A stretch of 34,556 bases of DNA from an uncultured Bacteroidales bacterium (GTDB lineage Bacteria > Bacteroidota > Bacteroidia > Bacteroidales > Marinilabiliaceae): NCBI GenBank assembly GCA_945607565.1, contig CALYZD010000016.1:1-34556 (forward strand). The letters are read 5' to 3'. Shown in pieces: positions 33 to 18,664 of the stretch. Every line of letters begins with the position of its first letter. Position 1 is the stretch's first letter. A program made the position numbers and the translations under genes. Under the pieces are notes generated by a model. The model had not been told where the DNA came from. It saw only the letters and a program-made list of their open reading frames with translations, and searched no databases.

Positions 33-1202
33 ATGATGAACAGACAACACATCGCCACGCTCGCCCTGGCCGCCATGGCGGCCGCCTCGTGCGCCACCGG
101 GACACCCGAATGGATGACCTGCGCCGGCATCGCAAGGGCCATGGAGAGCGCCAACGACCACTGGCAGTCGACACACCCCGACAGCGGCAACGCCTTCTGG
201 GACAACGCCGTCTACCACACCGGCAACATCGAGGCCTGCCTCGTCCGACCCGACACCGCATGGCTCGGCTACTCCACGCGCTGGGCCGAGCGCAACCGCT
301 GGATGGGCGCCACCTGCCCCGACACCGCCCTGTGGCAATATCGCCCCTATGGCGAAGCGCCTGAGTTTGTGCTCTTTGGCGATTGGCAGGTATGCTTCCA
401 GACCTATCTCGACCTGGCACTGATGCAGCCCGACAGCATCCGCACGGCACGCGCCTTTGAGGTGATGCAGCACGAGATAGCGACACCCCGCACCGACTAC
501 TGGTGGTGGGCCGACGCCCTCTACATGGTGATGCCCGTGATGACCAAAATGTATCTGCACACCGGCAACGAGCTCTACATCAGCAAGATGTGTCAATACA
601 TGGCCCACACCGACAGCGTCATGTACGACGCCGACGCCTGCCTCTACTATCGCGACGCCAAATACGTCTACCCGCAGCACGCCACCGCCTCGGGCGCCAA
701 AGACTTCTGGGCGCGCGGCGACGGATGGGTCATGGCGGCGCTGGCCAAGGTCCTGGCCGACATCCCCGACGACGGCCCCCACCGCCCGCAACTGCTCGAA
801 CGCTTCAGAGCCATGGCCTCGGCCGTGGCAGCCTGCCAGCAGCCGCAGGGCCACTGGACGCGCTCGATGCTCGACCCCGACCACGCGCCCGGATTCGAGA
901 CCAGCGGCACGGCGCTCTTCACCTTCGCCCTTTTCCGGGGCATCAACCGGGGCTGGCTCCCGCGCGACCGCTATCTGCCGGTGGCCGTCAGGGGGTGGGA
1001 CTATCTGTGCCACACCGCCCTGCAGCCCGACGGCCGCGTGGGCTACGTCCAGCCCATAGGCGAGCGCGCCATCCCCGGCCAGACGGTCGACGCGCAGTCG
1101 ACTGCCAACTTCGGCGTGGGCGCGTTCCTGCTCGCGGCGGCCGAGGCCTATCGCTATGCCGCATCCGAAGATCAACCACAATCGTCCGAAAATCAAAACT
1201 AA
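33..1202 (+). CDS. GH105 unsaturated glycuronyl (rhamnogalacturonyl) hydrolase, probable lipoprotein
   Basis: Predicted to remove 4,5-unsaturated galacturonate or glucuronate from oligosaccharides left by polysaccharide lyases. The 389-residue protein has a (alpha/alpha)6-barrel pattern. The segment DYWWWADALYMVMP around residues 156-169 matches the GH105/GH88 catalytic region, with D161 the likely general acid (family knowledge from YteR). Further family-like stretches are FWARGDGWVMAAL near 228-240 and the ETSGTALF region near 290-297. The N-terminus is hydrophobic and ends in AASC near residue 20, an imperfect lipobox, so outer-membrane anchoring is likely but not certain. Two adjacent ATGs (33 and 36) could both serve as start. 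The next gene begins 6 nt after the stop, indicating an operon. No lyase that would generate its substrate is in the window. Substrate choice between pectin and arabinogalactan is inference. Confidence 0.88.
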   Translation: MMNRQHIATLALAAMAAASCATGTPEWMTCAGIARAMESANDHWQSTHPDSGNAFWDNAVYHTGNIEACLVRPDTAWLGYSTRWAERNRWMGATCPDTALWQYRPYGEAPEFVLFGDWQVCFQTYLDLALMQPDSIRTARAFEVMQHEIATPRTDYWWWADALYMVMPVMTKMYLHTGNELYISKMCQYMAHTDSVMYDADACLYYRDAKYVYPQHATASGAKDFWARGDGWVMAALAKVLADIPDDGPHRPQLLERFRAMASAVAACQQPQGHWTRSMLDPDHAPGFETSGTALFTFALFRGINRGWLPRDRYLPVAVRGWDYLCHTALQPDGRVGYVQPIGERAIPGQTVDAQSTANFGVGAFLLAAAEAYRYAASEDQPQSSENQN

Positions 1203-1208
1203 ACTGTC

Positions 1209-2468
1209 ATGAATAAAACATTGTCTGTGCTGATGCTCGCGCTCGCCCTCGGCGTCACGACATCGGCAGCCCGCAAAAACGAGGCGCAGCAGCCCTCGTC
1301 GCCCCAGGCCGACCGCCAGTATTGGGCCGAACTGCTCTACAAGATCGCCCAGCCCGTGCTCAGCAATATGGCCGAGGGCCGGCTGGTGCAGAACATGCAG
1401 CTCGAACTCAGCCCCACGTGGGACGGCCGCGACCGCCGCGTGGCCTACATGGAGTGCTTCGGCCGACTGATGGCCGGACTGGCCCCGTGGCTGGCCCTGC
1501 CCGACGACGACACGCCCGAGGGCGCCATGCGCTCGCGGCTGCGCTCGTGGGCGCTCCGCAGCTACGCCAACGCCGTCGACCCGTCGAGCCCCGACTACCT
1601 GCTGTGGCGCAAGGAGGGCCAGACGCTGGTGGACGCCGCCTACATCGCCGAGAGCTTCCTGCGTGCCCCCGAGGCCCTCTGGCAGCCGCTCGACAGCCTG
1701 ACCAAGGCCCGATACATCGAGGAGTTCACGCTCCTGCGCCGCGTCGACCCCTGCTACACCAACTGGATTCTCTTCGCCGCGCTCAACGAGGCCTTCCTCG
1801 AAAGCGTGGGCGCCACCGCCGACCGTATGCGCATGACGCTCACCGTCCGCAAGCTGCAGGAGTGGTACGTGGGCGACGGCTGGTATTCCGACGGCCAGCA
1901 GACGTTCCACTACGATTACTACAACTCCTACGTCATGCACCCGATGATGCTCGAACTCACCGAAGTGCTGCGCGACAGCAAGATATGGTTCTGGGGCGAC
2001 GACATGGCCAAGGTGGCCGAGCGCGCCCAGATGCGGTGCCGCCGCTATGCCGAGCAGCTCGAGCGCATCATATCGCCCGCAGGCACCTATCCGCCCATCG
2101 GACGCTCGCTCACCTACCGCACGGCCGCCTTCCAGCCGCTGGCACTCATGGCGCTGCGCCACACGCTGCCTCAGAAGACCACGCCCGGACAGGTCCGCGC
2201 CGCGCTCACGGCCGTCCACAAGGCCATCTTTTCGGACCCCACCAACTTCAACGAGGGCGGCTTCCTGACCATCGGCTTCGTGGGCCATCACCCCGACCTC
2301 GGCGACTGGTACAGCAACAACGGCAGCATGTACATCACATCGCTCAGCTTCCTGCCACTCGGCCTGCCCGCCACCGACCCCTTCTGGACCGACCCCGCCG
2401 AGCCGTGGACCGCCCGCAAGGCTTTTGCCGGACAGGATTTCAAAAAAGATTATCCGGTTGACTATTAA
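1209..2468 (+). CDS. DUF2264 domain protein, probable secreted glycoside hydrolase-like enzyme
   Basis: A 419-residue protein with a Sec signal peptide (hydrophobic to about residue 21) and then one DUF2264 (PF10022) domain over nearly the whole length. Family-like segments include TWDGRDRRVAYMECFGRLMAG near residues 70-90, the YVGDGWYSDGQQTFHYDYYNSYV stretch near 217-239, and GRSLTYRTAAFQPLALMAL near 297-315. The aromatic and acidic richness fits an alpha/alpha-barrel carbohydrate enzyme. From memory, some DUF2264 proteins are assigned to a beta-glucuronidase family (GH154) acting on arabinogalactan; I cannot confirm that this one belongs there. It sits 6 nt after the GH105 gene and upstream of beta-galactosidase and arabinofuranosidase genes, so a role on an acidic, galactose- and arabinose-bearing glycan is a fair inference. 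A 134-bp gap before the next gene holds no promoter I can defend. Confidence 0.82.
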   Translation: MNKTLSVLMLALALGVTTSAARKNEAQQPSSPQADRQYWAELLYKIAQPVLSNMAEGRLVQNMQLELSPTWDGRDRRVAYMECFGRLMAGLAPWLALPDDDTPEGAMRSRLRSWALRSYANAVDPSSPDYLLWRKEGQTLVDAAYIAESFLRAPEALWQPLDSLTKARYIEEFTLLRRVDPCYTNWILFAALNEAFLESVGATADRMRMTLTVRKLQEWYVGDGWYSDGQQTFHYDYYNSYVMHPMMLELTEVLRDSKIWFWGDDMAKVAERAQMRCRRYAEQLERIISPAGTYPPIGRSLTYRTAAFQPLALMALRHTLPQKTTPGQVRAALTAVHKAIFSDPTNFNEGGFLTIGFVGHHPDLGDWYSNNGSMYITSLSFLPLGLPATDPFWTDPAEPWTARKAFAGQDFKKDYPVDY

Positions 2469-2599
2469 TGATATATCGCATAAATTTTATTGCCTGATGA
2501 TGCACAAACTAACCTTCGTGTAACATCGGGCATATTTTATATGACTTTTTTGTGCTTTTTTTGCAAATCAGTCATCCACGCAAACAAAAATTGACATAA

Positions 2600-5695
<3,096 letters not shown>

Positions 5696-5715
5696 AAATC
5701 AATAAAAATTAACGC

Positions 5716-7248
<1,533 letters not shown>

Positions 7249-7443: not shown

Positions 7444-7665
7444 ATGTATTGGACACTTGAATTGGCTTCGAAGCTCGAAGATGCTCCGTGGCCGGCAACA
7501 AAAGACGAATTGATAGACTATGCATCACGCTCGGGCGCGCCTCTCGAAGTGATAGAAAATCTCCAGGAAATCGAAGACGACACCGAGATTTTCGAAAGCA
7601 TCGAAGATATTTGGCCCGATTATCCGAGCAAGGAGGATTTCTTCTTCAACGAAGACGAATATTGA
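7444..7665 (+). CDS. Small acidic DUF2795 protein
   Basis: A 73-residue cytoplasmic protein starting MYWTLELASKLEDAPWPATK and ending in a very acidic tail (FFFNEDEY). The N-terminal block of about 50 residues resembles the small DUF2795 (PF11387) family common in Bacteroidota, in which an 'APWPATKDELIDYA' type stretch is typical. Function is unknown. The gene has its own promoter-like sequence upstream and a strong terminator at 7702-7743, so it is a single-gene unit. It lies tail-to-tail with guaB if the intervening island is removed, suggesting that this is the native chromosomal order. There is no signal peptide or membrane segment. Confidence 0.8.
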   Translation: MYWTLELASKLEDAPWPATKDELIDYASRSGAPLEVIENLQEIEDDTEIFESIEDIWPDYPSKEDFFFNEDEY

Positions 7666-7743: not shown

Positions 7744-7813
7744 GTGGGGTGAGATAGAATTGCGAACCTGCGTGATGTGGAATGATAGTAATAAGCTAAA
7801 TCCTCCAAAACCA

Positions 7814-7850
7814 AAACGCTCTCCGCAAGCATGTGTTGCAGAGAGCGTTT
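7814..7850 (-). terminator. Duplicate of the guaB terminator hairpin
   Basis: 10-bp arms AAACGCTCTC / GAGAGCGTTT (7814-7823 and 7841-7850) with an inner GCAA/TTGC pairing. On the - strand it is followed by TTTTGGTTTTGG. It is identical to the hairpin at 17063-17099 and now lies away from any complete gene, where it may shield the DUF2795 region from the island. Confidence 0.75.
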
Positions 7851-7893
7851 CTTATCGGAATATGAAATTGTTTTTCTTTTCGCGGAGTGATTT

Positions 7894-7951
7894 TCATTGG
7901 CGCGAGTAGTTGGGCGCCTCCTGCGTGATGGCCACGTCGTGCGGGTGGCTT
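7894..7951 (-). pseudogene. guaB: guaB 3'-terminal remnant (about the last 18 codons)
   Basis: Read on the - strand this encodes [17 protein letters not shown] and a TGA stop, identical to the C-terminus of the intact guaB at 17143-18624. The reading frame breaks off at 7951, where island sequence begins. It is not a functional gene; it is the scar left by insertion of the island into the guaB 3' end. Confidence 0.95.
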
Positions 7952-8001: not shown

Positions 8002-8051
8002 CATATCTCGAAAATAGAGATATGGTAAGTGATAAATAGATATACGTATAT
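8002..8051. promoter_or_regulatory. Two dyad-symmetric sites upstream of the methyltransferase start
   Basis: First dyad: perfect 8-bp arms CATATCTC (8002-8009) and GAGATATG (8017-8024) with a 7-nt spacer. Second: the perfect 12-bp palindrome ATATACGTATAT at 8040-8051, which overlaps the ATG at 8050. They lie in the only untranslated leader of the five-gene operon. They could be an operator or an mRNA hairpin limiting translation. No regulator gene is in the cassette, so the binding partner is unknown. A promoter must lie between 7952 and 8000. TATTTTG at 7972-7978 is an imperfect -7 candidate. Confidence 0.5.
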
Positions 8052-9366
8052 GGTGAAAAAAAAATATACATTCATTGATTTATTTGCAGGTGCTGGTGGC
8101 TTGTCTGAAGGCTTTATAAGAGCTGGATTTGAACCTATTGCACATATCGAAATGAAAAAAGAGGCTTGTGACACTTTGCGAACACGAGCCGCTTATCATT
8201 ATTTGAAGGACAAAAAACAGCTTGATATTTACAAGAGTTATTTATTTCACAAGCAAGAAAAAGATGATGGTTCAAAACTTTGGAATCAAGTTCCAAAAGA
8301 AGTTATAGATACTGTTATCCAATCAGAAATTGGCGAAAAGACAATTGACGGAATATTTGAAAAACTTGATACTCTGATTGGTGAGCGACAGCTTGATTTG
8401 ATTATTGGTGGTCCTCCGTGTCAAGCTTATTCTGTAGCTGGGCGAGCAAGAAAAGGGGAGGCAATGGCGACTGATCCTCGCAATGAATTGTATAAATTTT
8501 ATGTTCAATTTCTCGACAGATACAAGCCCAAAATGTTTGTGTTTGAAAATGTGTTAGGAATTAGAACAGCAAAAGGAGGTGAGCCTTTCAGAGACTTGCA
8601 AAAACGAGTCCGCGAACTTGACAATTGTAATTATGAGATAGAGGCTCGTGAACAGATAGCGTCAGAGTTTGGGGTTTTGCAACGTCGACACAGAATGATT
8701 ATCATAGGATGGCGCAAGACTGATAACGGAAAGCCGACAAAATATGGTCATTATCCTAACCTTGATGAATTCAAAATAGATAATCAATATCAGACATTAA
8801 GAGATTTGTTTTCTGATTTGCCAACAAGGGTAGCAGGAGATGGCAAATTATGTGAATGTGTAAAATATACAAAGCCGATTTCCAAAATGGCATACTTACA
8901 AAAGTATGCTTTGCGAAGCAATGATTTTGACTTTACAACACAACATATTTCACGTCCGAACAATCTCAATGATAGGGAAATTTATTGCTGGGCAGTAAAT
9001 AAATTTCTGAGAGAAAGGAAACAATTGTCTTACAGCAAAGATGTGCCAGCAGATCATCAAAGGCATAAAAATAAGGAAACATTTGACAACCGTTTTTCTG
9101 TAGTTAATCCGTATGGAGTATGTCATACAGTAGTTGCTCACATTGCTATGGACGGACATTATTACATATATCCCACTCTGAATCCAACTGTTAATAATGT
9201 GCGTTCCATTACTGTTCGTGAGGCAGCACGCCTTCAATCATTCCCTGACGATTACTATTTCGAAGGATCACGAAGTGCAGCTTTTATGCAAATAGGTAAT
9301 GCTGTCCCTGTAATTATGGCTCAAAAAATAGCAGAAGCAATTCTAAAACAACTTGCACAAAAATGA
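8050..9366 (+). CDS. C5-cytosine DNA methyltransferase of the defence cassette
   Basis: A 438-residue enzyme that would methylate cytosine in a specific DNA sequence using S-adenosylmethionine. Motifs in order: I, FIDLFAGAGGLSEGF at residues 8-22; IV, GGPPCQAYS at 120-128 with catalytic C124; VI, ENV at 166-168; VIII, QRRHR at 211-215; and IX/X, ARLQSFPDDYYF and QIGNAVP near the C-terminus. The target-recognition region lies between VIII and IX. An in-frame GTG at 8029 would add seven residues, but the ATG at 8050 places motif I at the normal distance from the N-terminus, so I chose it. There is no N-terminal helix-turn-helix extension. The stop overlaps the next start (ATGA, 9363-9366). Likely the self-protecting modification arm of the system. 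Confidence 0.95.
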   Translation: MVKKKYTFIDLFAGAGGLSEGFIRAGFEPIAHIEMKKEACDTLRTRAAYHYLKDKKQLDIYKSYLFHKQEKDDGSKLWNQVPKEVIDTVIQSEIGEKTIDGIFEKLDTLIGERQLDLIIGGPPCQAYSVAGRARKGEAMATDPRNELYKFYVQFLDRYKPKMFVFENVLGIRTAKGGEPFRDLQKRVRELDNCNYEIEAREQIASEFGVLQRRHRMIIIGWRKTDNGKPTKYGHYPNLDEFKIDNQYQTLRDLFSDLPTRVAGDGKLCECVKYTKPISKMAYLQKYALRSNDFDFTTQHISRPNNLNDREIYCWAVNKFLRERKQLSYSKDVPADHQRHKNKETFDNRFSVVNPYGVCHTVVAHIAMDGHYYIYPTLNPTVNNVRSITVREAARLQSFPDDYYFEGSRSAAFMQIGNAVPVIMAQKIAEAILKQLAQK

Positions 9367-10856
9367 ATTACGACAATATAGAAGTCCAAAAAGCCGTACC
9401 TGATGCCTCATCAATGATTGAGACATTTCGTGCCATCGGTTACAATCTTGAAACTGCTGTAGCCGACATAATCGATAATTCAATTTCTGCTGATGCAAAA
9501 AACATCTACATAGAACGCATTTGGCACGGTGGCACATCTATCATCACTATTAGAGATGATGGGCATGGAATGAATGGAGAAGAATTGATTAATGCTATGC
9601 GTCCAGGAGCACAAAATCCGCTTGCCGAAAGGGCAGAAACTGATTTAGGACGTTTTGGTTTGGGGTTGAAAACAGCCTCTTTTTCACAATGCCGCAAACT
9701 AACTGTTCTTAGCAAAAGGAACGGCTATGCACCAATTTTTTGGACATGGGATTTGGATTATGTAGCACAAACAAACGAATGGAATCTGATCAAATGGATT
9801 CCAGATGAATATAAGCATGCTTTAGATAATCAAACTTCTGGCACGATTGTTATTTGGACGGACTTAGATAGAGTTTTACCATTATCAACCTCAGAAGCCA
9901 ACGATAAAGCAAAAAGAAAATTTTCCAATTCTCTGGAACGTGTCAGGCAACATATTGCCATGACTTTTCACCGTTTTATGGAAGATAAAATCGTAAATAT
10001 TTATTGGTGTGGCAATATAATTGAACCATGGAATCCATTTTTTTCAAGTCCAGATGAGAATTTCACTGATACGCCTGCACCACAAGAAGGCATTTCTGGA
10101 GGAGGAACAATAAAGGGATTTGTGCTTCCACACAAAAGCCGTGTTTCCGAATATGCATATAAAGCAGGTGAAGGAATGAACGGTTATCCTGCACAGCAAG
10201 GTTTTTATGTTTACAGAGGTAAACGACTTCTATTGGCTGGTGATTGGTTGGGCATTTTTCGCAAAGAAGAACATTACAAACTTGTTCGTATTCAAATAGA
10301 TTTACCAAATACGCTCGATACAAATTGGCAAATTGACATCAAGAAATCCAAAGCAACACCGCCTGCGAATTGTCGGGACCAAATAGAACAATACGCAAAA
10401 AAAATACGCAGTGTTGGCGAAGATGTTTTTCGACATCGGGGAAAGATACTGAAATATAGGGCTGGTCAAGATTTTCAACCGCTTTGGTTAGATAAAACCA
10501 AGAATGGTAAATGGTCTTTTGTTGTTAATCGCGAACACCTATTGATAAAAAGTATAAAGGAAATGGCTAAAAAAGAGCCTGACCATGCAATTGACACACT
10601 TCTCAAATTCATTGAAGAATCAATTCCTACAAAAGCAATCTATGTAAAAGAGACGCACGAAGAAACTAAAGATTCGGATAAGCAAGAGATACAGAAAGAG
10701 CCTTTTTCTGATATGGACATGAACCTTATTAGACAAATGTTAAGGCAAATGTTCGATAACCAAATCAATAATGGCAAAACACCAGAGCAATCAAAATCAC
10801 TACTTAAAACGATAGAACCATTCAATAATTACGAAGAGCTAATTGAAGAATTATGA
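9363..10856 (+). CDS. MORC/MutL-like GHKL ATPase of the defence cassette
   Basis: A 497-residue protein with an N-terminal GHKL (Hsp90/MutL/histidine-kinase type) ATPase domain. The Bergerat-fold motifs are clear: ETAVADIIDNS at 30-40 (N box), DDGHGM at 65-70 (G1) and DLGRFGLGLKTAS at 94-106 (G2). A second domain (about 200-350) resembles the ribosomal S5-like transducer region, with a conserved-looking lysine in the IDIKKSKATPP segment. The C-terminal 100 residues are charged and helical. By analogy with MORC and MutL proteins it would clamp on DNA or control partner activity in an ATP-dependent way. It overlaps its neighbours on both sides by 4 nt (ATGA), consistent with translational coupling and complex formation. 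GHKL identification is firm; the mechanism is inferred. Confidence 0.9.
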   Translation: MNYDNIEVQKAVPDASSMIETFRAIGYNLETAVADIIDNSISADAKNIYIERIWHGGTSIITIRDDGHGMNGEELINAMRPGAQNPLAERAETDLGRFGLGLKTASFSQCRKLTVLSKRNGYAPIFWTWDLDYVAQTNEWNLIKWIPDEYKHALDNQTSGTIVIWTDLDRVLPLSTSEANDKAKRKFSNSLERVRQHIAMTFHRFMEDKIVNIYWCGNIIEPWNPFFSSPDENFTDTPAPQEGISGGGTIKGFVLPHKSRVSEYAYKAGEGMNGYPAQQGFYVYRGKRLLLAGDWLGIFRKEEHYKLVRIQIDLPNTLDTNWQIDIKKSKATPPANCRDQIEQYAKKIRSVGEDVFRHRGKILKYRAGQDFQPLWLDKTKNGKWSFVVNREHLLIKSIKEMAKKEPDHAIDTLLKFIEESIPTKAIYVKETHEETKDSDKQEIQKEPFSDMDMNLIRQMLRQMFDNQINNGKTPEQSKSLLKTIEPFNNYEELIEEL

Positions 10857-13657
10857 CACCAGAAATACTAAATCAAGCAGTTCGTCATTGTAGGCTAATT
10901 ATTGGTGAAGAAGCCTCAACAACAGATGTGAAGATAGACCAAGCCATCGCTATGGTCACACCATTATTTGGAGCAGAAAATATAGATACAATTCGTTTGA
11001 AACAAGAATTGCAAACCATATACTCAACGCAAGTTGAATCATTCCGAATCTTAGTTGGCAGAGAACGCCGGCAACCATGGTTGAATGATTTCAAGGCCAA
11101 TGAACAATCCGAATGGAAGTTTTGGAAACGTTATAAAGAATACCTTGAAAACAAAGGTTTTGCACCTCGCATTATAGAGAATTTAGACATCCTTACGGAT
11201 AAAATTCTTGATAATATGTTCAATCCAAAACTCAACGACATTCAACTCAGCAAAAAAGGACTTGTTGTTGGTCAAGTGCAATCTGGTAAAACTGCAAATT
11301 ATACAGGTCTTATTTGCAAGGCTGCTGATGCAGGGTTCAATTTTATCATTGTACTTGCTGGTATTCACAATAATCTGCGTAGTCAGACACAAGCCCGTCT
11401 CGATGAGGGTTTCTTGGGCTTTGGCACTCAATTTGAACGTGTTTATGCCAATAATGCACAGAATAAAATAGGAGTTGGCCGTAGCACACTATATCCAAAT
11501 TTGGTAGCTCATTCAATTACAACAAGTGAAGAAAAGGGCGATTTTACCAAACGTGCCGCTGGTATTGTGAATTTTAACACATCAGACCCAATTTTACTCG
11601 TCATCAAAAAGAATGTTTCCGTTTTGAAGCGTCTTTATACATGGTTGAAAACACAATCAAATGATAACAAAATAAACGCCAAATCGGTGCTTGTTATAGA
11701 CGACGAAGCTGATAACGCATCGGTAAACACAAATAGACCAGAACTGAATCCAACAAAAATAAATGGCTTAATTCGTGATATAATAAACATTTTTAACCGC
11801 AATGTTTATGTCGGATATACAGCAACTCCATTTGCCAATATATTCATCGCACAAGATGACACGGACTTATTCCCTCGCGATTTCATAATCAATCTGCCAG
11901 CACCTTCAAACTATATTGGTCCAGAAAAAGTCTTTGGTACATCTATTGTTCCTAATGATAATAATGATGACATTCTGCCTATTGTTTCCAAAATTTCCGA
12001 CTATTCAAATTTTGTTCCTGAAGGACATAAAAAAGATGGTGTCAAGCCTTCTTTTGATGACATACCAGAATCTTTGAAAACAGCAATCAAGTGTTTCATT
12101 GTTACTTGTGCTATTCGCATTGCACGTGGTCAGGGGTGCAAACATAACTCTATGCTTATTCACGTGTCAAGATTTCAAATATGGCAAAATGCAATAAAAG
12201 ATTTGATTGAGGAGTTGTTTAGATATTACAAGCAAGAAGTCGAGGCAAATGACCCCGCTATGCTTGAGGAGTTGAGACGCATTTTTGAAGCAGATACTAA
12301 CAACTATACTTCATATACAAGTACGACCAATAAAATACTCAATTCATCACTTTCTACAATTGATAACAATATACAAGTCCACACATGGGCGGAAATCAAA
12401 CCACTTCTTAATCGAGCTGTACAAAAGATTGTTGTCAAATCAATAAATGGTTCTTCTGGCGATATTATTGATTACCAACAGAATGAAAGAACAGGTATTT
12501 CTGTCATTGCAATAGGAGGTGATAAATTATCACGTGGTCTTACACTTGAGGGTTTGTCTGTTAGTTATTTCCTCCGTGCCTCAAAAATGTATGATACGCT
12601 GATGCAAATGGGACGTTGGTTCGGCTATCGCCCTGGTTATGTCGATTTGTGTCGTCTTTTCACAAGCGAAGAACTCAACGAATGGTTCAGGCATATTACC
12701 CTTGCAAGTGAAGAATTAAGAGATGAATTCAACTATTTGGCAGAATCTGGACAAACACCAGAACAATATGCACTAAAAGTCCGTCAACACGATGGTGTTT
12801 TGCAAATCACAGCAATTAACAAGATGAGAAACACCAGACAGATTGAAGTTTCATGGGCTGGCAAATTACGTGAAACTTACCAATTGCCTATGGGCAAAGG
12901 ATTGAAACAACGCAACCTCATCGCAACACAAGAATTGATTAACACACTTGGGACATCAGAACCACCTCAAAATAATAAAGGCAATTATTTGTGGAGAAAT
13001 GTCAGCCCTGAAGACATATGCACATACTTTGCTGCTTTCAATGTGGCAAAGTCGCTGAAAAAGGTAAATTTGGAACTTATATGCAACTATGTCAGAAAAC
13101 TTGCCCAACAAGGAGAACTGACATCGTGGCGTGTTGTGCTGATGAATAAGAAGAACGCACAAAAACAATTCTCTTTTGGAAATAACATTAATGTGGGATG
13201 TTTTGATCGTAATCGTGCTAAAGAAATTGGAGATGATACTTATTTCATAAGAAAGAATCACATTGTTGGTAATCAAGAAGATGAATTTATTGATATAGAC
13301 AATGAAGCTCTAAACGATGCGTTGATTGAAACCCGTGCCAAAATACAAGATTGGAGTAAGGAGTATCCATCGCCCAAAATCGTCCGTGAACAATATCGTT
13401 CGGTTACAAATCCTCTTTTAATCATATACCCTCTTAATCCAATATGCGCCAACATAAAAAATGACGATGGTACACCTAAAAATGGCACTATCCAATATGC
13501 AGAAATAGATCCTCCATTTATTGGTTTTGCTATCTCTTTTCCACATAGCGATGTCCCGAACAATGCCGTTTCTTATATAGTGAATAGAGTTGCAGAATAT
13601 GCAGATACCGAAGATAATTTTGATAACGAAGATGATAACAACTATGATGCAGAATAA
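10853..13657 (+). CDS. Z1 domain superfamily II helicase-like ATPase
   Basis: A 934-residue protein. Helicase motifs: Walker A GQVQSGKT at 140-147, a DDEAD Walker B at 283-287, and GYTATPFANIF at 321-331 (motif III-like). The Z1 signature follows, with RGLTLEGLSVSYFLR from 561 and MGRWFGYRPGY around 586-596 (motif VI region). Z1 (PF10593) proteins are found next to MORC-type ATPases, methyltransferases and PD-(D/E)XK nucleases in predicted restriction-like operons, where they probably translocate on DNA. The C-terminal 280 residues are family-specific and may bind partners. The start overlaps the GHKL gene by 4 nt; the end overlaps the nuclease gene by 14 nt. Confidence 0.93.
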   Translation: MTPEILNQAVRHCRLIIGEEASTTDVKIDQAIAMVTPLFGAENIDTIRLKQELQTIYSTQVESFRILVGRERRQPWLNDFKANEQSEWKFWKRYKEYLENKGFAPRIIENLDILTDKILDNMFNPKLNDIQLSKKGLVVGQVQSGKTANYTGLICKAADAGFNFIIVLAGIHNNLRSQTQARLDEGFLGFGTQFERVYANNAQNKIGVGRSTLYPNLVAHSITTSEEKGDFTKRAAGIVNFNTSDPILLVIKKNVSVLKRLYTWLKTQSNDNKINAKSVLVIDDEADNASVNTNRPELNPTKINGLIRDIINIFNRNVYVGYTATPFANIFIAQDDTDLFPRDFIINLPAPSNYIGPEKVFGTSIVPNDNNDDILPIVSKISDYSNFVPEGHKKDGVKPSFDDIPESLKTAIKCFIVTCAIRIARGQGCKHNSMLIHVSRFQIWQNAIKDLIEELFRYYKQEVEANDPAMLEELRRIFEADTNNYTSYTSTTNKILNSSLSTIDNNIQVHTWAEIKPLLNRAVQKIVVKSINGSSGDIIDYQQNERTGISVIAIGGDKLSRGLTLEGLSVSYFLRASKMYDTLMQMGRWFGYRPGYVDLCRLFTSEELNEWFRHITLASEELRDEFNYLAESGQTPEQYALKVRQHDGVLQITAINKMRNTRQIEVSWAGKLRETYQLPMGKGLKQRNLIATQELINTLGTSEPPQNNKGNYLWRNVSPEDICTYFAAFNVAKSLKKVNLELICNYVRKLAQQGELTSWRVVLMNKKNAQKQFSFGNNINVGCFDRNRAKEIGDDTYFIRKNHIVGNQEDEFIDIDNEALNDALIETRAKIQDWSKEYPSPKIVREQYRSVTNPLLIIYPLNPICANIKNDDGTPKNGTIQYAEIDPPFIGFAISFPHSDVPNNAVSYIVNRVAEYADTEDNFDNEDDNNYDAE

Positions 13658-14654
13658 CAATCATATAGCTGAGCTTTGGCAGCGGTTGGAAGAAGAAAAG
13701 ACGGTTGGTCTTGTGAAGCGTTTATATTCAAGCGTAATGGATTTTCACATATACGCGACTTTTCAATATCCAGAATCATATTTTGGTGTGGCATTCAGTT
13801 TTAGTAGCGACATCAAAATAGACATTTCCAATTTTGAGAATCTACGGGATTTGAAGGTATTGCTTCTTGATGACACTTCTTACGTCAACACAAAACTTAT
13901 CATTATTGAATTGCTGCATCCAACAAGTAGGGATATTTTTGCAATATTATGTGAGAATCTTGTTTTGTCTGTTATTCAGTTGAATACAGAACAAAAAATT
14001 GTTCACGCGGTTATCGGTCAACTGAACAAATGGAAAACTTTATTTGACAAAAGTACTTCTGAAGGATTATCAGCCGAGCAACAACAAGGTTTGTTTGGAG
14101 AACTTACATTCTTGCGAAAATGCCTTCTGCAGCACGATGCAAATCCTTTTGACGTACTCAATACTTGGGTTGGTGTAGAAGCTGCTTTACGTGATTTTCA
14201 ATGTTCTACATGGGCTGTTGAGGTTAAGACAACTGCAACAAACAATCCGCAGAGAGTCGCAATAAACGGTGAAAGACAATTGGATGAGACTCTACTTGAA
14301 AATCTTTTCCTCTTTCATTGTTCCGTTGAGGTTTCCAATGGTAATGGCGAAACTCTTAATCAAATTATAGCGGATATACGTTCCTTATTAGAAAGTAATG
14401 TTTATGCTCTGAACCTATTCAACTCAAAGCTATTTGAAGTAGGATATTTTGATGGTCATGCCAATAAGTATGAAAATAGATTTTATAAAATCAGATCTGA
14501 AAACTATTACAAAATCACGGATGACTTTCCTCGTATCAAGGAGAATGAATTGCGTAGTGGTGTGAGCGGAGTGAAATACGACATTATACTCGCCATGTGT
14601 GATGAGTATCTAATTACAGAAAGTCAACTATTAAGCACTATTCAGAATATATGA
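13644..14654 (+). CDS. DUF4420 PD-(D/E)XK motif nuclease
   Basis: A 336-residue protein matching the DUF4420 (PF14390) family of putative PD-(D/E)XK endonucleases. A plausible active site is E153 (QGLFGELTFL), D184 (ALRDFQ) and E193-x-K195 in WAVEVKTTA, the usual order for the fold. The likely role is the cutting subunit of the restriction-like complex. Several upstream in-frame ATGs exist (13590, 13599, 13632), but 13644 or 13647 gives a natural N-terminus (MMQNNNHIAELWQRLEEE) and a modest 14-nt overlap with the Z1 gene, as in the rest of this operon. The end overlaps the AIPR start by 4 nt. The catalytic assignment comes from motif reading, not structure. Confidence 0.87.
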   Translation: MMQNNNHIAELWQRLEEEKTVGLVKRLYSSVMDFHIYATFQYPESYFGVAFSFSSDIKIDISNFENLRDLKVLLLDDTSYVNTKLIIIELLHPTSRDIFAILCENLVLSVIQLNTEQKIVHAVIGQLNKWKTLFDKSTSEGLSAEQQQGLFGELTFLRKCLLQHDANPFDVLNTWVGVEAALRDFQCSTWAVEVKTTATNNPQRVAINGERQLDETLLENLFLFHCSVEVSNGNGETLNQIIADIRSLLESNVYALNLFNSKLFEVGYFDGHANKYENRFYKIRSENYYKITDDFPRIKENELRSGVSGVKYDIILAMCDEYLITESQLLSTIQNI

Positions 14655-16987
14655 ATGATGTCGAAAAATATTACCGGTCATTTCAACAAGAAATAATCGC
14701 TTTACAAGAAAGTGACGATGAAGGCGGTTCTCGTGAACAGCTGTTTACCCGTATTGCCATTGATATGTTAGCCGATGCTGGTGAAACGGAAAACACCACA
14801 ATTGCTTATGATGAGAAGGATTTGGGCAAAAGGGGACAACACAAAATCAATGGATACGCTGTTTCTGACAATTATGAAACCGTTGATTTATTCATTTCAA
14901 TATACAAGACAGGCGAAACAATAGTCATTGTTCCCAAAAGTGAAATAGACAAAGCCGCCTCTCTCATTACGAATTTTTTTCGCAAGGCCACTTACAATGA
15001 CTATGCGTGCGATATAGATGAATCTCGTCCAATTTTTGATTTCGCTAATCAGCTGGCAACTTATGATGAATTGAAGGGCAATTTGATCCGTGTAAATGCT
15101 TTTATTCTAACCAATGGAGAATACAAAGGCGGCATTCCGCCAAATGGCGAAATCAATGGGATACAAATTTTTTACCATGTCTTCGACATAAATAAATTAT
15201 ATCAGCTTTCAGAAGATTCACGTCTACCTATTGAAATAGATTTCGATGATTTTGGTGGCGAAAAGTTTGTCATACCTTGTATGCCAGCCAGTAATTCTAA
15301 CGGAGATTACAAAGCGTATCTCGCTATTATGTCTGGTAAATGTCTCTATAAGCTATATGAACAATATGGGGCTCGCCTATTAGAGCAAAATGTTCGTTCT
15401 TTTTTGCAATTCGCAGGCAAAATAAACAAGGGCATTCGTGATACCATCAAAACCGAACCGCATATGTTTTTTGCATTCAACAATGGTATTGCCGCTACCG
15501 CAGACCGCATTGAACTTGATGATAATAACCATATACGGAAGATTCGTAATCTGCAGATCGTAAACGGCGGTCAGACTACAGCGTCTATCTATACAACAGC
15601 GAAAAAAGACAAGACAGACATTTCTGATATTTATGTTCAGGTTAAATTCTCTGTAATTGATAATCCGGAACAATATTCGGATATAGTTTCGCGAATTTCA
15701 CGTTATTCAAATACACAAAATAAGGTGAATGATGCCGATTTCTCTGCCAACAATCCGGCATTAATCGCTATCGAAAAACTATCCAGATATGTACTTTCAC
15801 CTATAACACCGTCTTGTAATATTCAGACATATTGGTTCTTTGAACGTGCACGAGGGCAGTATAAGACTTTGCGAAGTCGCGAAGCCTTTACAAAGGCTCA
15901 GCGTGCGGCATTTGATAAAAAATATCCCAAAGAACAGGTGTTTACTAAAGTTGAATTGGCAAAATATATCAACGCTTATCAGGAAGTTGTTGGCGGCTAC
16001 AATAAGATTATTATTGGCCCGAATGCTGTTGTTAGAGGCAATGAAAAGAACTACGCTAAATTCATTAACAATAATTTGCCTGATGAAAAGAAAATCAACA
16101 ACGTCTATTTTGAAGATGCAATAGCCAAAGCCATAATTTTCAAGACAGCAGAAAAGCGCTATGGAACAAGGAAGAACGACTATTGTATTGGCGAACTTCG
16201 TCAAGTCGCTGTACCTTACACGATTTCATTGATTAGTTACCTTACCGGAAACAAATTGGATTTGTACAAAATCTGGAAGAACCAATCTCTTTCTGATGCA
16301 TTGTCAGATTTCATATATGATATGATGAAACAAGTCAATGCCTTTATCATGGACTCTTCGCCTATTTCACATTATATTGAGTGGGCAAAAAAAGATGAGT
16401 GTTGGAACTTGGCCAAACAACATGAGTGGAATTTCAATATTGATGAAATCAAGTCTGACTTGATAGATGAAATCAATCCGCCTAAGCGGAAAATTCTAAC
16501 AGATGAATGTGATTCTGAAGAAGAGGAAAAACATAAGGAGAGGCTATTGCGTAGCATCCCTTTCTCTTTGTGGAAAAAGATAGGCGAATGGGGTAAAGAC
16601 GCAGGAATATTAGACCCCACAAAACAAGGCTGGGCGAGTGATGTGGCGTTCATTGTTAAGAATAAACGCCAATTTGGAAAACAAGATAAAAAGCATGCGT
16701 TGTTTTTGTTCGATCTGGTGTGTCAACGTAATTCTGAGCTATTGGAGGAAGCTGATATAATTGCCGAATCTGAACAGAACGTTTCCCCAAAATCATCGTC
16801 TGATGAAATGACTCTTGAACTGATTCAGCGAATGGTGGATTGGGATAGACGCAAGCAAATTTTAGAGGATTGGAAGTGGAAAGTAATGGATGACGTCGTT
16901 CAGGGTCGCAAGCCTCTTACTGATCGGATGAGGTATGTTTTTTATCTAAATTTAGAAAAGTTGAAAAGAAATGGATTTGAAGGATAG
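14651..16987 (+). CDS. AIPR family (abortive-infection phage-resistance-like) protein
   Basis: A 778-residue protein whose middle region carries the AIPR (PF10592) signature: RSFLQFAGKINKGIRDTI near 252-269, FFAFNNGIAATADRI around 274-288, NGGQTTASIY at 305-314, and RYSNTQNKVNDADFSANNP around 352-370. The N-terminal 100 residues (REQLFTRIAIDMLADAG, KINGYAV at 65-71, VDLFISIYK at 78-86) look like a degenerate or small nuclease-type fold seen in other AIPR proteins. The C-terminal part is acidic and helical and ends in a basic segment. AIPR proteins recur in phage-defence operons; their biochemical role is unclear. As the last gene of the cassette it is cotranscribed with the methyltransferase. 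The guaB hairpin at 17063-17099 is the only terminator-like structure after it. Confidence 0.88.
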   Translation: MNDVEKYYRSFQQEIIALQESDDEGGSREQLFTRIAIDMLADAGETENTTIAYDEKDLGKRGQHKINGYAVSDNYETVDLFISIYKTGETIVIVPKSEIDKAASLITNFFRKATYNDYACDIDESRPIFDFANQLATYDELKGNLIRVNAFILTNGEYKGGIPPNGEINGIQIFYHVFDINKLYQLSEDSRLPIEIDFDDFGGEKFVIPCMPASNSNGDYKAYLAIMSGKCLYKLYEQYGARLLEQNVRSFLQFAGKINKGIRDTIKTEPHMFFAFNNGIAATADRIELDDNNHIRKIRNLQIVNGGQTTASIYTTAKKDKTDISDIYVQVKFSVIDNPEQYSDIVSRISRYSNTQNKVNDADFSANNPALIAIEKLSRYVLSPITPSCNIQTYWFFERARGQYKTLRSREAFTKAQRAAFDKKYPKEQVFTKVELAKYINAYQEVVGGYNKIIIGPNAVVRGNEKNYAKFINNNLPDEKKINNVYFEDAIAKAIIFKTAEKRYGTRKNDYCIGELRQVAVPYTISLISYLTGNKLDLYKIWKNQSLSDALSDFIYDMMKQVNAFIMDSSPISHYIEWAKKDECWNLAKQHEWNFNIDEIKSDLIDEINPPKRKILTDECDSEEEEKHKERLLRSIPFSLWKKIGEWGKDAGILDPTKQGWASDVAFIVKNKRQFGKQDKKHALFLFDLVCQRNSELLEEADIIAESEQNVSPKSSSDEMTLELIQRMVDWDRRKQILEDWKWKVMDDVVQGRKPLTDRMRYVFYLNLEKLKRNGFEG

Positions 16988-17060
16988 ATGATTTCAATGC
17001 ACTAATATAGTGTCTTCTGCCTGATTGAGTTCGGAACTGATTGCTGACAGGCGCATCAAG

Positions 17061-17200
17061 CAAAACGCTCTCCGCAAGCATGTGTTGCAGAGAGCGTTTC
17101 TTATCGGAATATGAAATTGTTTTTCTTTTCGCGGAGTGATTTTCATTGGCGCGAGTAGTTGGGCGCCTCCTGCGTGATGGCCACGTCGTGCGGGTGGCTT
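17061..17200. repeat. 140-bp direct repeat, right copy (part of intact guaB plus terminator)
   Basis: Identical to 7812-7951. Here the repeat is continuous with the rest of guaB: 17143-17200 is the end of the coding sequence and 17061-17142 is the 3' untranslated region with the terminator. It marks the right boundary of the island. Confidence 0.97.
17063..17099 (-). terminator. guaB terminator hairpin, possibly bidirectional
   Basis: 10-bp stem with arms at 17063-17072 and 17090-17099 plus an inner GCAA/TTGC pairing, 44 nt past the guaB stop. On the - strand it is followed by only a TTTT run. It lies between the convergent AIPR gene and guaB and may serve both. Confidence 0.75.
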
Positions 17201-18624
17201 TCTTGCATGCCCGATGCCGTGATGCGTGTGAAGCGTGCCTGGTGCAGGGCCGTGATGTCTTTGGCGCCGCAGTAGCCCATGCCCGAGCGGATGCCGCCAA
17301 TCAGCTGATAGATAACCTCGTAGAGCGAGCCTTTGTACGGCACGCGGGCGCTGATGCCCTCGGGTACCAGTTTTTTGACGTCGTCTTCCATGTCCTGGAA
17401 GTAGCGGTCTTTCGAGCCTTTCTGCATGGCTTCGAGCGAGCCCATGCCTCGGTAGGCCTTGAACTTGCGTCCGTTGTAGATTATCGTTTCGCCGGGCGAC
17501 TCTTCGACGCCGGCAAACAGGCCTCCGGCCATCAGGCAGTGCGCTCCGGCGGCGAGTGCTTTTACAAAGTCGCCCGAATATCTAAGGCCGCCGTCGGCAA
17601 TGACGGGGACATCTTCGAAGCCGTTCTCTTTGAGGGCTTTGGCCACGTCGTAGATGGCCGAGAGCTGTGGCACGCCCACGCCGGCTATGATGCGGGTGGT
17701 GCAGATCGAGCCCGGGCCGATGCCCACTTTCACGGCGTCGGCGCCTGCCTTGGCCAGTGCTACGGCCGCTTCGCCTGTGGCGATGTTGCCCACCACGATG
17801 TCGATGTCAGGATATTTTTCGCGTGCCTTTTTCAGCGTTTCTATCACGCCTCGGCTGTGTCCGTGTGCCGTGTCAATCACTATCGCGTCGACGTTGGCCT
17901 TGACCAGTGCGTCGATGCGCTCGAAGGTGTTGCTCGTCACGCCCACGCCGGCCGCCACTCTGAGGCGTCCCTTGCCGTCTTTGCAGGCGTAGGGTTTGTC
18001 TTTGGCCTTGGTGATGTCTTTGTAGGTGACAAGTCCCACAAGCTTGTTGTTCTTGTCGACCACGGGCAGCTTTTCTATTTTGTAGTGCTGGAGTATCTCG
18101 GCCGCTTTTTCCAAGTCGGTGGTCTGGTCGGTGGTTATCAGGTCGTCTTTGGTCATCACGTCCTGCACTTTCAGGTTCATGTTCTGCTGGAAGCGCAGGT
18201 CTCTGTTTGTCACTATGCCAACCAGATAGCCAAATTCGTCGACTACGGGTATGCCGCCGATCTTGTATTCTTTCATCAGTTTCAGAGCGTCGCCCACCGT
18301 CTTGTTCTGGAGGATGGAGACGGGGTCGTAGATCATGCCGTTTTCGGCTCGCTTGACGATTTCGACCTGCTTGGCCTGCTCTTCGATTGTCATGTTTTTG
18401 TGGATGACGCCGATTCCGCCTTCGCGTGCGATGGCGATGGCAAGGCGTGCTTCGGTCACAGTGTCCATGGCTGCCGACACGATTGGCGTTTTCAGTTTGA
18501 TGTGGCGAGAGAAGTTTGACGATAAATCGACTTCGCGCGGAAGAACTTCGGAATAGGCCGGTATTAGAAGTACATCGTCGAACGTGAGTCCGTTCGAGGC
18601 GATTCTATCTGCTAAAAATGACAT
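17143..18624 (-). CDS. guaB: Inosine-5'-monophosphate dehydrogenase
   Basis: Oxidises IMP to XMP with NAD+, the committed step of guanine nucleotide synthesis. The 493-residue protein is of normal length for the family. The TIM barrel starts with [17 protein letters not shown] and is interrupted by two CBS domains (about 95-205) of the regulatory Bateman module. The catalytic cysteine is C308 in GPGSICTTR. The flap and phosphate-binding motifs ([27 protein letters not shown]) follow. I start at the ATG at 18624 ([12 protein letters not shown]), which matches family N-termini; an in-frame codon at 18657 would add 11 unlikely residues. The last 58 nt lie in the 140-bp repeat, so the C-terminus now in use may have been supplied by the island, though the protein sequence is intact. 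guaA, the next enzyme, is 11 kb away. Confidence 0.98.
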
Positions 18625-18656
18625 GTGGTTATTTATTTGAAATATAAAATTTCGCA

Positions 18657-18664
18657 CAAAACTA
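18657..18664 (-). promoter_or_regulatory. guaB -7 promoter element
   Basis: TAGTTTTG on the - strand, an exact TAnnTTTG match, 32 nt upstream of the guaB ATG. No good -33 element lies at 19 nt spacing, so this is a partial match. Confidence 0.55.

What the first reader, a model, noticed from the sequence alone, without database searches (positions are those of the whole stretch)
8050..16987. Five-gene MORC-type restriction-like defence cassette (C5 methyltransferase, GHKL ATPase, Z1 helicase, DUF4420 nuclease, AIPR)
Seen: five consecutive + strand genes whose junctions all overlap (4, 4, 14 and 4 nt), with intact motifs: C124 PCQ and ENV in the methyltransferase, DDGHGM and GRFGLGLKTAS in the ATPase, GQVQSGKT and DDEAD in the Z1 protein, E153/D184/E193-x-K195 in the nuclease, NGGQTT in AIPR. 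Known: such gene neighbourhoods were predicted to be restriction-modification-like systems with MORC ATPases by Iyer, Abhiman and Aravind from sequence analysis. Inferred: the methyltransferase marks self DNA, the Z1 motor and GHKL ATPase form an ATP-driven DNA-sensing complex, DUF4420 cuts, and AIPR acts as an accessory or abortive effector. All modules look functional and experimental knowledge is sparse as far as I know.
Basis: partly seen in the sequence, partly recalled or inferred. Interest (0 to 1): 0.85.

Follow-up and report, generated by a model that had tools for sequence, protein, structure and literature searches.

The report
Mza-like restriction cassette beside guaB
Five overlapping genes form a complete copy of a widespread, already predicted bacterial phage-defence system that probably methylates the host's own DNA and cuts unmethylated foreign DNA; what is new is that the block sits alone, with no integration enzyme, between two copies of the end of the neighbouring guaB gene.

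Summary
The five genes are real, intact and correctly described. Genes 2-5 match the PADLOC and NCBIfam MzaB-E models; gene 1 is a C5-cytosine methyltransferase. The same order (methyltransferase, MORC ATPase, Z1, DUF4420, AIPR) is complete in 62 of 81 homologous loci from Bacteroidota to Chloroflexota, cyanobacteria and archaea, with catalytic residues essentially invariant. This layout is the 'type II' putative defence system of Miller et al. 2022, a methyltransferase-bearing relative of mzaABCDE that lacks MzaA. It is therefore a new member of a known kind, not a new system. Best mechanism: an ATP-dependent restriction-modification-like machine comparable to CglI/NgoAVII, whose Z1 protein is biochemically characterised. 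Vsr or mismatch-glycosylase genes adjoin 55 of 99 related operons, supporting true 5-methylcytosine chemistry. The methyltransferase target-recognition region is well conserved, so related operons may share a motif; a methyltransferase-bearing Mza in Listeria coincides with GCWGC modification, a motif to test. Two unrelated loci show the same geometry at other genes. How the cassette inserted is unresolved.

The parts
7809..7951 (.). left copy of the 143-nt direct repeat: displaced copy of the guaB 3' end plus terminator hairpin
   Evidence: one mismatch at 7811; 7812-7951 identical to 17061-17200
8002..8024 (.). perfect inverted repeat CATATCTC-N7-GAGATATG upstream of the methyltransferase gene, possible operator
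   Evidence: the same repeat was not found upstream of the methyltransferase gene in 16 relatives examined, so weak
8050..9366 (+). C5-cytosine DNA methyltransferase (PF00145); likely ATG start at 8050, GTG 8029 possible
   Evidence: E 1.4e-59; best PADLOC model DrmMII, 483 bits
9363..10856 (+). MzaB-like MORC-type GHKL ATPase
   Evidence: MzaB E 9.8e-102; MORC S5 motif
10853..13657 (+). MzaC-like Z1-domain SF2 ATPase
   Evidence: MzaC E 2.1e-171; Z1 E 1.6e-84; SF2 helicase folds, best E 1.1e-6
13644..14654 (+). MzaD-like PD-(D/E)XK nuclease, DUF4420
   Evidence: E 9.1e-85; E-D-E-x-K invariant
14651..16987 (+). MzaE-like AIPR protein
   Evidence: (AIPR E 1.3e-92, AIPR_N E 4.2e-39)
17058..17200 (.). 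right copy of the direct repeat: 85 nt of downstream terminator region plus 58 nt of the guaB 3' end
17143..18657 (-). guaB (IMP dehydrogenase), intact; apparent insertion target, convergent with the cassette
   Evidence: IMPDH E 5.5e-160

Best explanation
This is a complete, probably functional phage-defence cassette of the Mza / Z1-DUF4420-AIPR-MORC group with its own C5 methyltransferase. Proposed working: (1) the methyltransferase marks a short motif in host DNA (inferred; GCNGC-like is a motif to test). (2) On unmarked incoming DNA the MORC ATPase dimer clamps or entraps DNA and loads the Z1 motor (inferred from MORC/MutL biology). (3) The Z1 protein hydrolyses ATP and moves or remodels the complex along DNA (shown for the CglI relative, inferred here). 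(4) The DUF4420 PD-(D/E)XK protein cuts (inferred from its invariant active site). (5) AIPR contributes DNA or nucleotide binding through a nuclease-like N-terminal domain with an incomplete catalytic set and a ParB-like core, acting as specificity or checkpoint subunit rather than as a proven toxin (weak inference). The cassette was probably acquired horizontally from low-GC bacteria and lies as an island between duplicated ends of guaB.
For: Family models for all five proteins. Gene order complete in 62 of 81 loci. Catalytic residues conserved 95-100% in 73-95 homologs per protein, so selection is for activity. Vsr or HhH-GPD mismatch-repair genes at the operon in 55 of 99 loci (domains), expected if the methyltransferase makes 5-methylcytosine; the host has a Vsr on another contig. 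The Z1 model folds as an SF2 motor. In CglI/NgoAVII the Z1-type protein is a DNA-dependent ATPase coupled to a nuclease, triggered by sites not methylated by a C5 methyltransferase recognising GCSGC (PMC4267653; PMC5737866). Four Listeria monocytogenes strains with a methyltransferase-encoding mza system show GCWGC/GCSGC-type modification (PMC10687267).
Against: No experiment on this cassette. The B3 recognition domain and PLD nuclease of CglI are absent, so the specificity subunit is unknown. The AIPR fold matches are weak (no E below 0.001). Whether methylation protects the host or serves another role is untested; the original Mza is described with a sigma factor (MzaA) that is absent here. 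The Listeria motif is correlative, and homology of that methyltransferase to this one was not tested.
Confidence: 0.66

Rival explanations
1. Abortive-infection reading: sensing by the MORC/Z1 complex triggers AIPR (and perhaps DUF4420) to damage host DNA or another target, and the methyltransferase is an antidote-like safeguard; the cassette kills or arrests infected cells instead of clearing phage DNA.
For: AIPR family name and the AbiU profile match (E 6.3e-23); AIPR_N has restriction-fold-like matches (McrC, FokI, HamA).
Against: The AIPR_N acidic/lysine set is incomplete (E29 93%, D79 85%, K96 80%, hydrophobic where the second acidic residue should be). The strict conservation of the DUF4420 active site and the common Vsr partners fit a methylation-guided nuclease at least as well.
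Confidence: 0.2
2. Selfish maintenance module: an R-M-like cassette kept mainly because losing it is lethal (post-segregational killing), with defence a by-product.
For: Island-like low GC, flanking repeats that would allow exact loss by recombination, patchy distribution (matches at E <= 1e-100 in 11 of 393 genomes of the order, own included).
Against: Complex ATP-dependent restriction systems are generally poor at post-segregational killing (general knowledge); conservation of all five genes across phyla points to defence.
Confidence: 0.1
3. Insertion mode A (a question separate from function): remnant of a site-specific integrative element (CIME-like) that inserted at the guaB 3' end and lost its integrase, or was moved in trans.
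For: Direct repeats spanning a gene 3' end and terminator, gene left intact; CIME definition in PMC5704250.
Against: No integrase in the island; only two tyrosine recombinases, XerC/XerD-like, and no serine recombinase were found in the 93%-complete genome. The three loci with this geometry have three different target genes. No guaB-tail duplication within the downstream 3-13 kb examined in 40 relatives.
Confidence: 0.35
4. Insertion mode B: the target end was duplicated during insertion in the host lineage itself, by RecA-type single crossover of a circle carrying the cassette, or by homology-assisted illegitimate recombination.
For: The repeat is 140/140 identical over its core, whereas guaB tails of other genera reach at most 92% over 51 nt. 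In L057 the two copies share 59 sites against a congener, so the duplication arose in the host lineage. Different target genes.
Against: No mechanism observed; only 3 of about 78 testable loci show it.
Confidence: 0.4
5. Assembly artefact of the flanks: the contig is a metagenome-type join through a repeat near an assembler's k-mer length.
For: Draft genome of 190 contigs; exact repeat of 140 nt; no empty-site relative found.
Against: Junctions pass from repeat into AT-rich sequence, the only two copies in the genome are these, and a named isolate assembly, Seramator thermalis L057, shows the same geometry.
Confidence: 0.12

Closest known systems
Type II putative defence system of Miller, Stern and Burstein 2022 (Nat Commun 13:5731, PMC9523054)
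   Same: Z1 protein of about 925 aa, DUF4420 nuclease, cytosine methyltransferase, AIPR protein, association with MORC ATPase
   Different: No associated transcriptional regulator in this cassette; their sequence clusters could not be compared directly
mzaABCDE (Mza; described as validated in PMC9523054, originally Gao et al. 2020, the latter from memory)
   Same: MzaB, MzaC, MzaD and MzaE homologs in the same order
   Different: No MzaA sigma factor; a C5 methyltransferase instead; all four proteins far below NCBIfam equivalog cut-offs
CglI / NgoAVII ATP-dependent restriction systems (PMC4267653, PMC5737866)
   Same: Z1-type ATPase plus separate nuclease plus C5 methyltransferase
   Different: Nuclease is PLD + B3, not PD-(D/E)XK; no MORC ATPase; no AIPR
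MORC-containing R-M neighbourhoods of Iyer, Abhiman and Aravind 2008 (PMC2292703)
   Same: MORC ATPase with S5 motif, Z1 SF2 helicase with DThhQXuRhFG motif, restriction-fold nuclease, Dcm and Vsr association, AIPR
   Different: None of substance; this is an instance of their third operon type
CIME (cis-mobilizable element without recombination genes, PMC5704250)
   Same: Island between direct repeats at the 3' end of a gene, no integrase
   Different: No related element or integrase acting on the repeats identified

Membership tests
mzaABCDE (Mza) | MzaB, C, D and E homologs in one operon | tested here: met
   profiles with E 1e-25 to 1e-171 (PADLOC), in order
mzaABCDE (Mza) | MzaA sigma-factor-like gene | tested here: not met
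   No further gene fits inside the island; the MzaA profile finds only a sigma-70-like match on another contig, as it does in 10 of 14 control genomes
mzaABCDE (Mza) | NCBIfam equivalog score cut-offs | tested here: not met
   403/850, 701/1500, 140/420, 373/1050 bits for B, C, D, E
Miller 2022 type II system | core of Z1, DUF4420 nuclease and cytosine methyltransferase | tested here: met
Miller 2022 type II system | AIPR protein and MORC ATPase | tested here: met
Miller 2022 type II system | putative transcriptional regulator (described as associated, not core) | tested here: not met
   no further gene between the repeats
Miller 2022 type II system | membership in the authors' sequence clusters | not testable with these tools
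MORC (not paraMORC) ATPase | GHKL motifs plus S5 motif GhXhhpXXRhl | tested here: met
   GFYVYRGKRLL at 280-290; R285 and R288 invariant in 89 homologs
CglI/NgoAVII R-M | Z1 ATPase and C5 methyltransferase | tested here: met
CglI/NgoAVII R-M | R protein with PLD nuclease and B3 domain | tested here: not met
   only DUF4420 and AIPR domains found in the other genes
CIME / integrative element remnant | attL/attR-like direct repeats at a gene 3' end | tested here: met
CIME / integrative element remnant | related element or integrase using the same site | tested here: not met
CIME / integrative element remnant | empty site in a close relative | tested here: inconclusive
   no congeneric genome held; guaB neighbours differ in the nearest genus
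active anti-phage system | protection against phage | not testable with these tools
   needs plating experiments

The most novel reading that the evidence does not exclude
Methyltransferase-bearing Mza cassettes spread as bare, integrase-less units that insert at the 3' end and terminator of a convergent gene and duplicate that gene end, leaving direct repeats from which the whole defence system can be lost exactly and harmlessly; this would be an undescribed way of moving defence systems.
Probability: 0.15. Interest if true: 0.65.

Novelty: new member of a known kind. Interest (0 to 1): 0.42.

Why it matters
The biochemistry of the whole Z1/DUF4420/AIPR/MORC group is open: no sequence match to any solved structure was found for three of its proteins. 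A complete, compact, intact cassette with conserved catalytic sites and a concrete motif prediction makes the methylation-versus-restriction question directly testable. The duplicated guaB end suggests how such systems may come and go without harming the host gene, and gives exact boundaries for cloning the natural unit.

Tried and rejected
Site-specific integrase: none in the island; the two recombinases in the genome look like XerC/XerD. guaB as a general integration hotspot: no duplicated guaB tail in 40 relatives. Clean empty site in relatives: not found; DUF2795 lies 5-8 kb from guaB in many relatives with other genes between, and the nearest genus has other neighbours. Other flanking repeats judged unrelated or uninformative: L050 (540 nt, in transposase-like genes), L081 (338 nt, at transposase-like genes), L052 (47-nt tRNA end, ordinary tRNA-type island with its own integrase), L074 (repeat more than 3 kb from the operon on one side). 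Conserved operator: the inverted repeat before the methyltransferase was not shared. Phage or plasmid carriage of close homologs: only distant Z1 relatives below about 42% identity. Literature searches on guaB islands and integrase-less defence islands gave nothing direct.
Full report
OBSERVATION. The five genes are present as described, with overlaps of 4, 4, 14 and 4 nt and intact motifs. The ORFs lie in a block of about 37% GC in a contig otherwise at 53-65%. The window is a whole contig of a 190-contig draft genome.

IDENTITY. Pfam gives DNA_methylase, HATPase_c_3, Z1, DUF4420 and AIPR plus AIPR_N. PADLOC and NCBIfam give MzaB, MzaC, MzaD and MzaE for genes 2-5, but all four stay far below the NCBIfam equivalog cut-offs, and MzaA is absent; the MzaA profile finds only a sigma-70-like match elsewhere, as it does in control genomes. 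The layout, with a cytosine methyltransferase instead of MzaA, is that of the type II putative system in PMC9523054, and the neighbourhood is the third MORC operon type of PMC2292703. The ATPase has the MORC-specific S5 motif, so it is MORC proper and not paraMORC.

CONSERVATION. A scan of representative genomes for the Z1 protein gave 80 loci. With the window, 62 of 81 hold methyltransferase-B-C-D-E in this order, and several of the rest are cut by contig ends. Organisms range from Bacteroidales to Chitinophagaceae, Chloroflexota, Paenibacillus, cyanobacteria (some without B and E) and Methanomicrobia. In alignments of 73-95 sequences per protein the active-site residues are invariant or nearly so, including E-D-E-x-K of DUF4420 in 89 of 89. 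Some relatives add a gene between methyltransferase and MzaB, often a NOV_C domain protein.

CHEMISTRY. Vsr (50 loci) or HhH-GPD glycosylase (5 loci) genes accompany the operon in 55 of 99 loci (domain calls). Such enzymes repair T:G mismatches that arise from 5-methylcytosine (general knowledge), so the methyltransferase is presumably active in the family. The window cassette lacks one, but the genome encodes a Vsr on contig C17. The region between motifs VIII and IX of the methyltransferase, which holds the target-recognition domain, is as conserved in its second half (residues 301-385, mean 0.59) as the catalytic IV-VIII region (0.58); its first half is not (0.38). This suggests that members may share related target motifs. 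Two literature leads converge on GCNGC: M.CglI and M.NgoAVII methylate GCSGC (PMC4267653), and Listeria strains with a methyltransferase-encoding mza show GCWGC/GCSGC modification, like the enzyme M.BatI (PMC10687267; PMC8936443). I did not test sequence relatedness of those enzymes to this one, so GCNGC is a motif to test, not a result.

MOTOR AND NUCLEASE. The Z1 model (mean pLDDT 79) matches SF2 helicases such as Mtr4 and Hel308 and, lower, Hachiman HamAB (E 1.1e-6 to 5e-4). In CglI/NgoAVII the Z1-type protein is a DNA-dependent ATPase that needs the nuclease subunit and an unmethylated site, and translocation was proposed. No sequence match to a solved structure was found for the Z1, DUF4420 or AIPR proteins.

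AIPR. The model (mean pLDDT 85) has its best, weak matches to McrC and FokI nuclease folds and to a ParB N-terminal domain (E 0.03 and above). In the N-terminal domain E29, D79 and K96 are common, but the second acidic residue of the PD-(D/E)XK set is hydrophobic. I read it as a nuclease-like DNA-binding module with a ParB-like core; this is a weak inference.

BOUNDARIES. A 143-nt direct repeat flanks the cassette: 7809-7951 and 17058-17200, one mismatch at its edge, 140 nt identical. The left copy ends 77-98 nt before the first gene and the right copy starts about 70 nt after the last. The right copy is the last 58 nt of guaB (intact IMP dehydrogenase) plus 85 nt downstream containing a hairpin; the left copy is a displaced duplicate. 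Only these two copies were found in the genome. Between them lie only the five genes. The genome has two tyrosine recombinases, both XerC/XerD-like by sequence, and no serine recombinase was found.

COMPARISON OF BOUNDARIES. Among about 78 homologous loci with both flanks, two more have tight repeats of the same geometry: L066 (Cytophagales MAG, 76 nt, 87%) at the end of a different convergent gene, and L057 (Seramator thermalis, about 560-690 nt, 91-96%) at the end of an intact SusD-like gene. Random 9-kb segments gave 0 of 204 at E <= 1e-15 with 1-kb flanks; most Mza loci also have none. In L057 the two copies share 59 sites against a congener, so the duplication arose in the host lineage. 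In the window the repeat is identical over 140 nt, although the guaB tail of other genera is at most 92% alike over 51 nt, pointing the same way. No empty site could be shown. The insertion mechanism is therefore open; three different target genes and no integrase argue against one site-specific element.

MECHANISM. Shown: gene content, order, conserved active sites, mismatch-repair partners in relatives, island boundaries. Inferred: self-marking by methylation, loading by MORC, Z1 movement, cutting by DUF4420, role of AIPR. It works like an ATP-dependent restriction system; it is not a member of CglI (nuclease differs) and not a strict mzaABCDE (no MzaA, scores below cut-off). It fits the Miller type II group on every core feature that I could test.

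VERDICT. Ordinary as a gene set (a new member of a known, published kind), with one worthwhile addition, the integrase-less placement between duplicated gene ends, and a concrete motif to test.

Noticed in passing
window 7809-7951 and 17058-17200: 143-nt direct repeat made of the guaB 3' end and terminator flanks the whole cassette; no integrase between the copies.
   Followed up: yes
L066 around 7015 and 16076; L057:6345-6907 and 16994-17683: Same geometry (displaced 3' end of a convergent intact gene on the far side of the operon) in two unrelated genomes, at other genes.
   Followed up: partly
window 8002-8024: Perfect inverted repeat CATATCTC-N7-GAGATATG just before the methyltransferase gene, possibly an operator.
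   Followed up: partly
window 7444-7665: DUF2795 gene, 85-93% identical across families of the order; in many relatives it lies 5-8 kb from guaB in convergent orientation, so the island may occupy a rearranged ancestral neighbourhood.
   Followed up: partly
L171 / L172 (G000 contig C17, 169-678): Vsr mismatch endonuclease gene at a contig edge of the same genome, a possible trans partner of the methyltransferase.
   Followed up: partly
window 33-7248: Gene run with GH88-family, DUF2264, GH2 beta-galactosidase and alpha-L-arabinofuranosidase proteins, as in a polysaccharide utilisation locus; long antisense ORFs here look like high-GC artefacts.
   Followed up: no
L158, L159, L160: Distant Z1-like proteins (26-41% identity) in two other genomes of the same family, possibly other Z1 systems.
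   Followed up: no
L022:6083-6874, L023:7994-8506: Optional extra gene between methyltransferase and MzaB in relatives: NOV_C domain protein, or a 170-aa protein without a Pfam match.
   Followed up: partly
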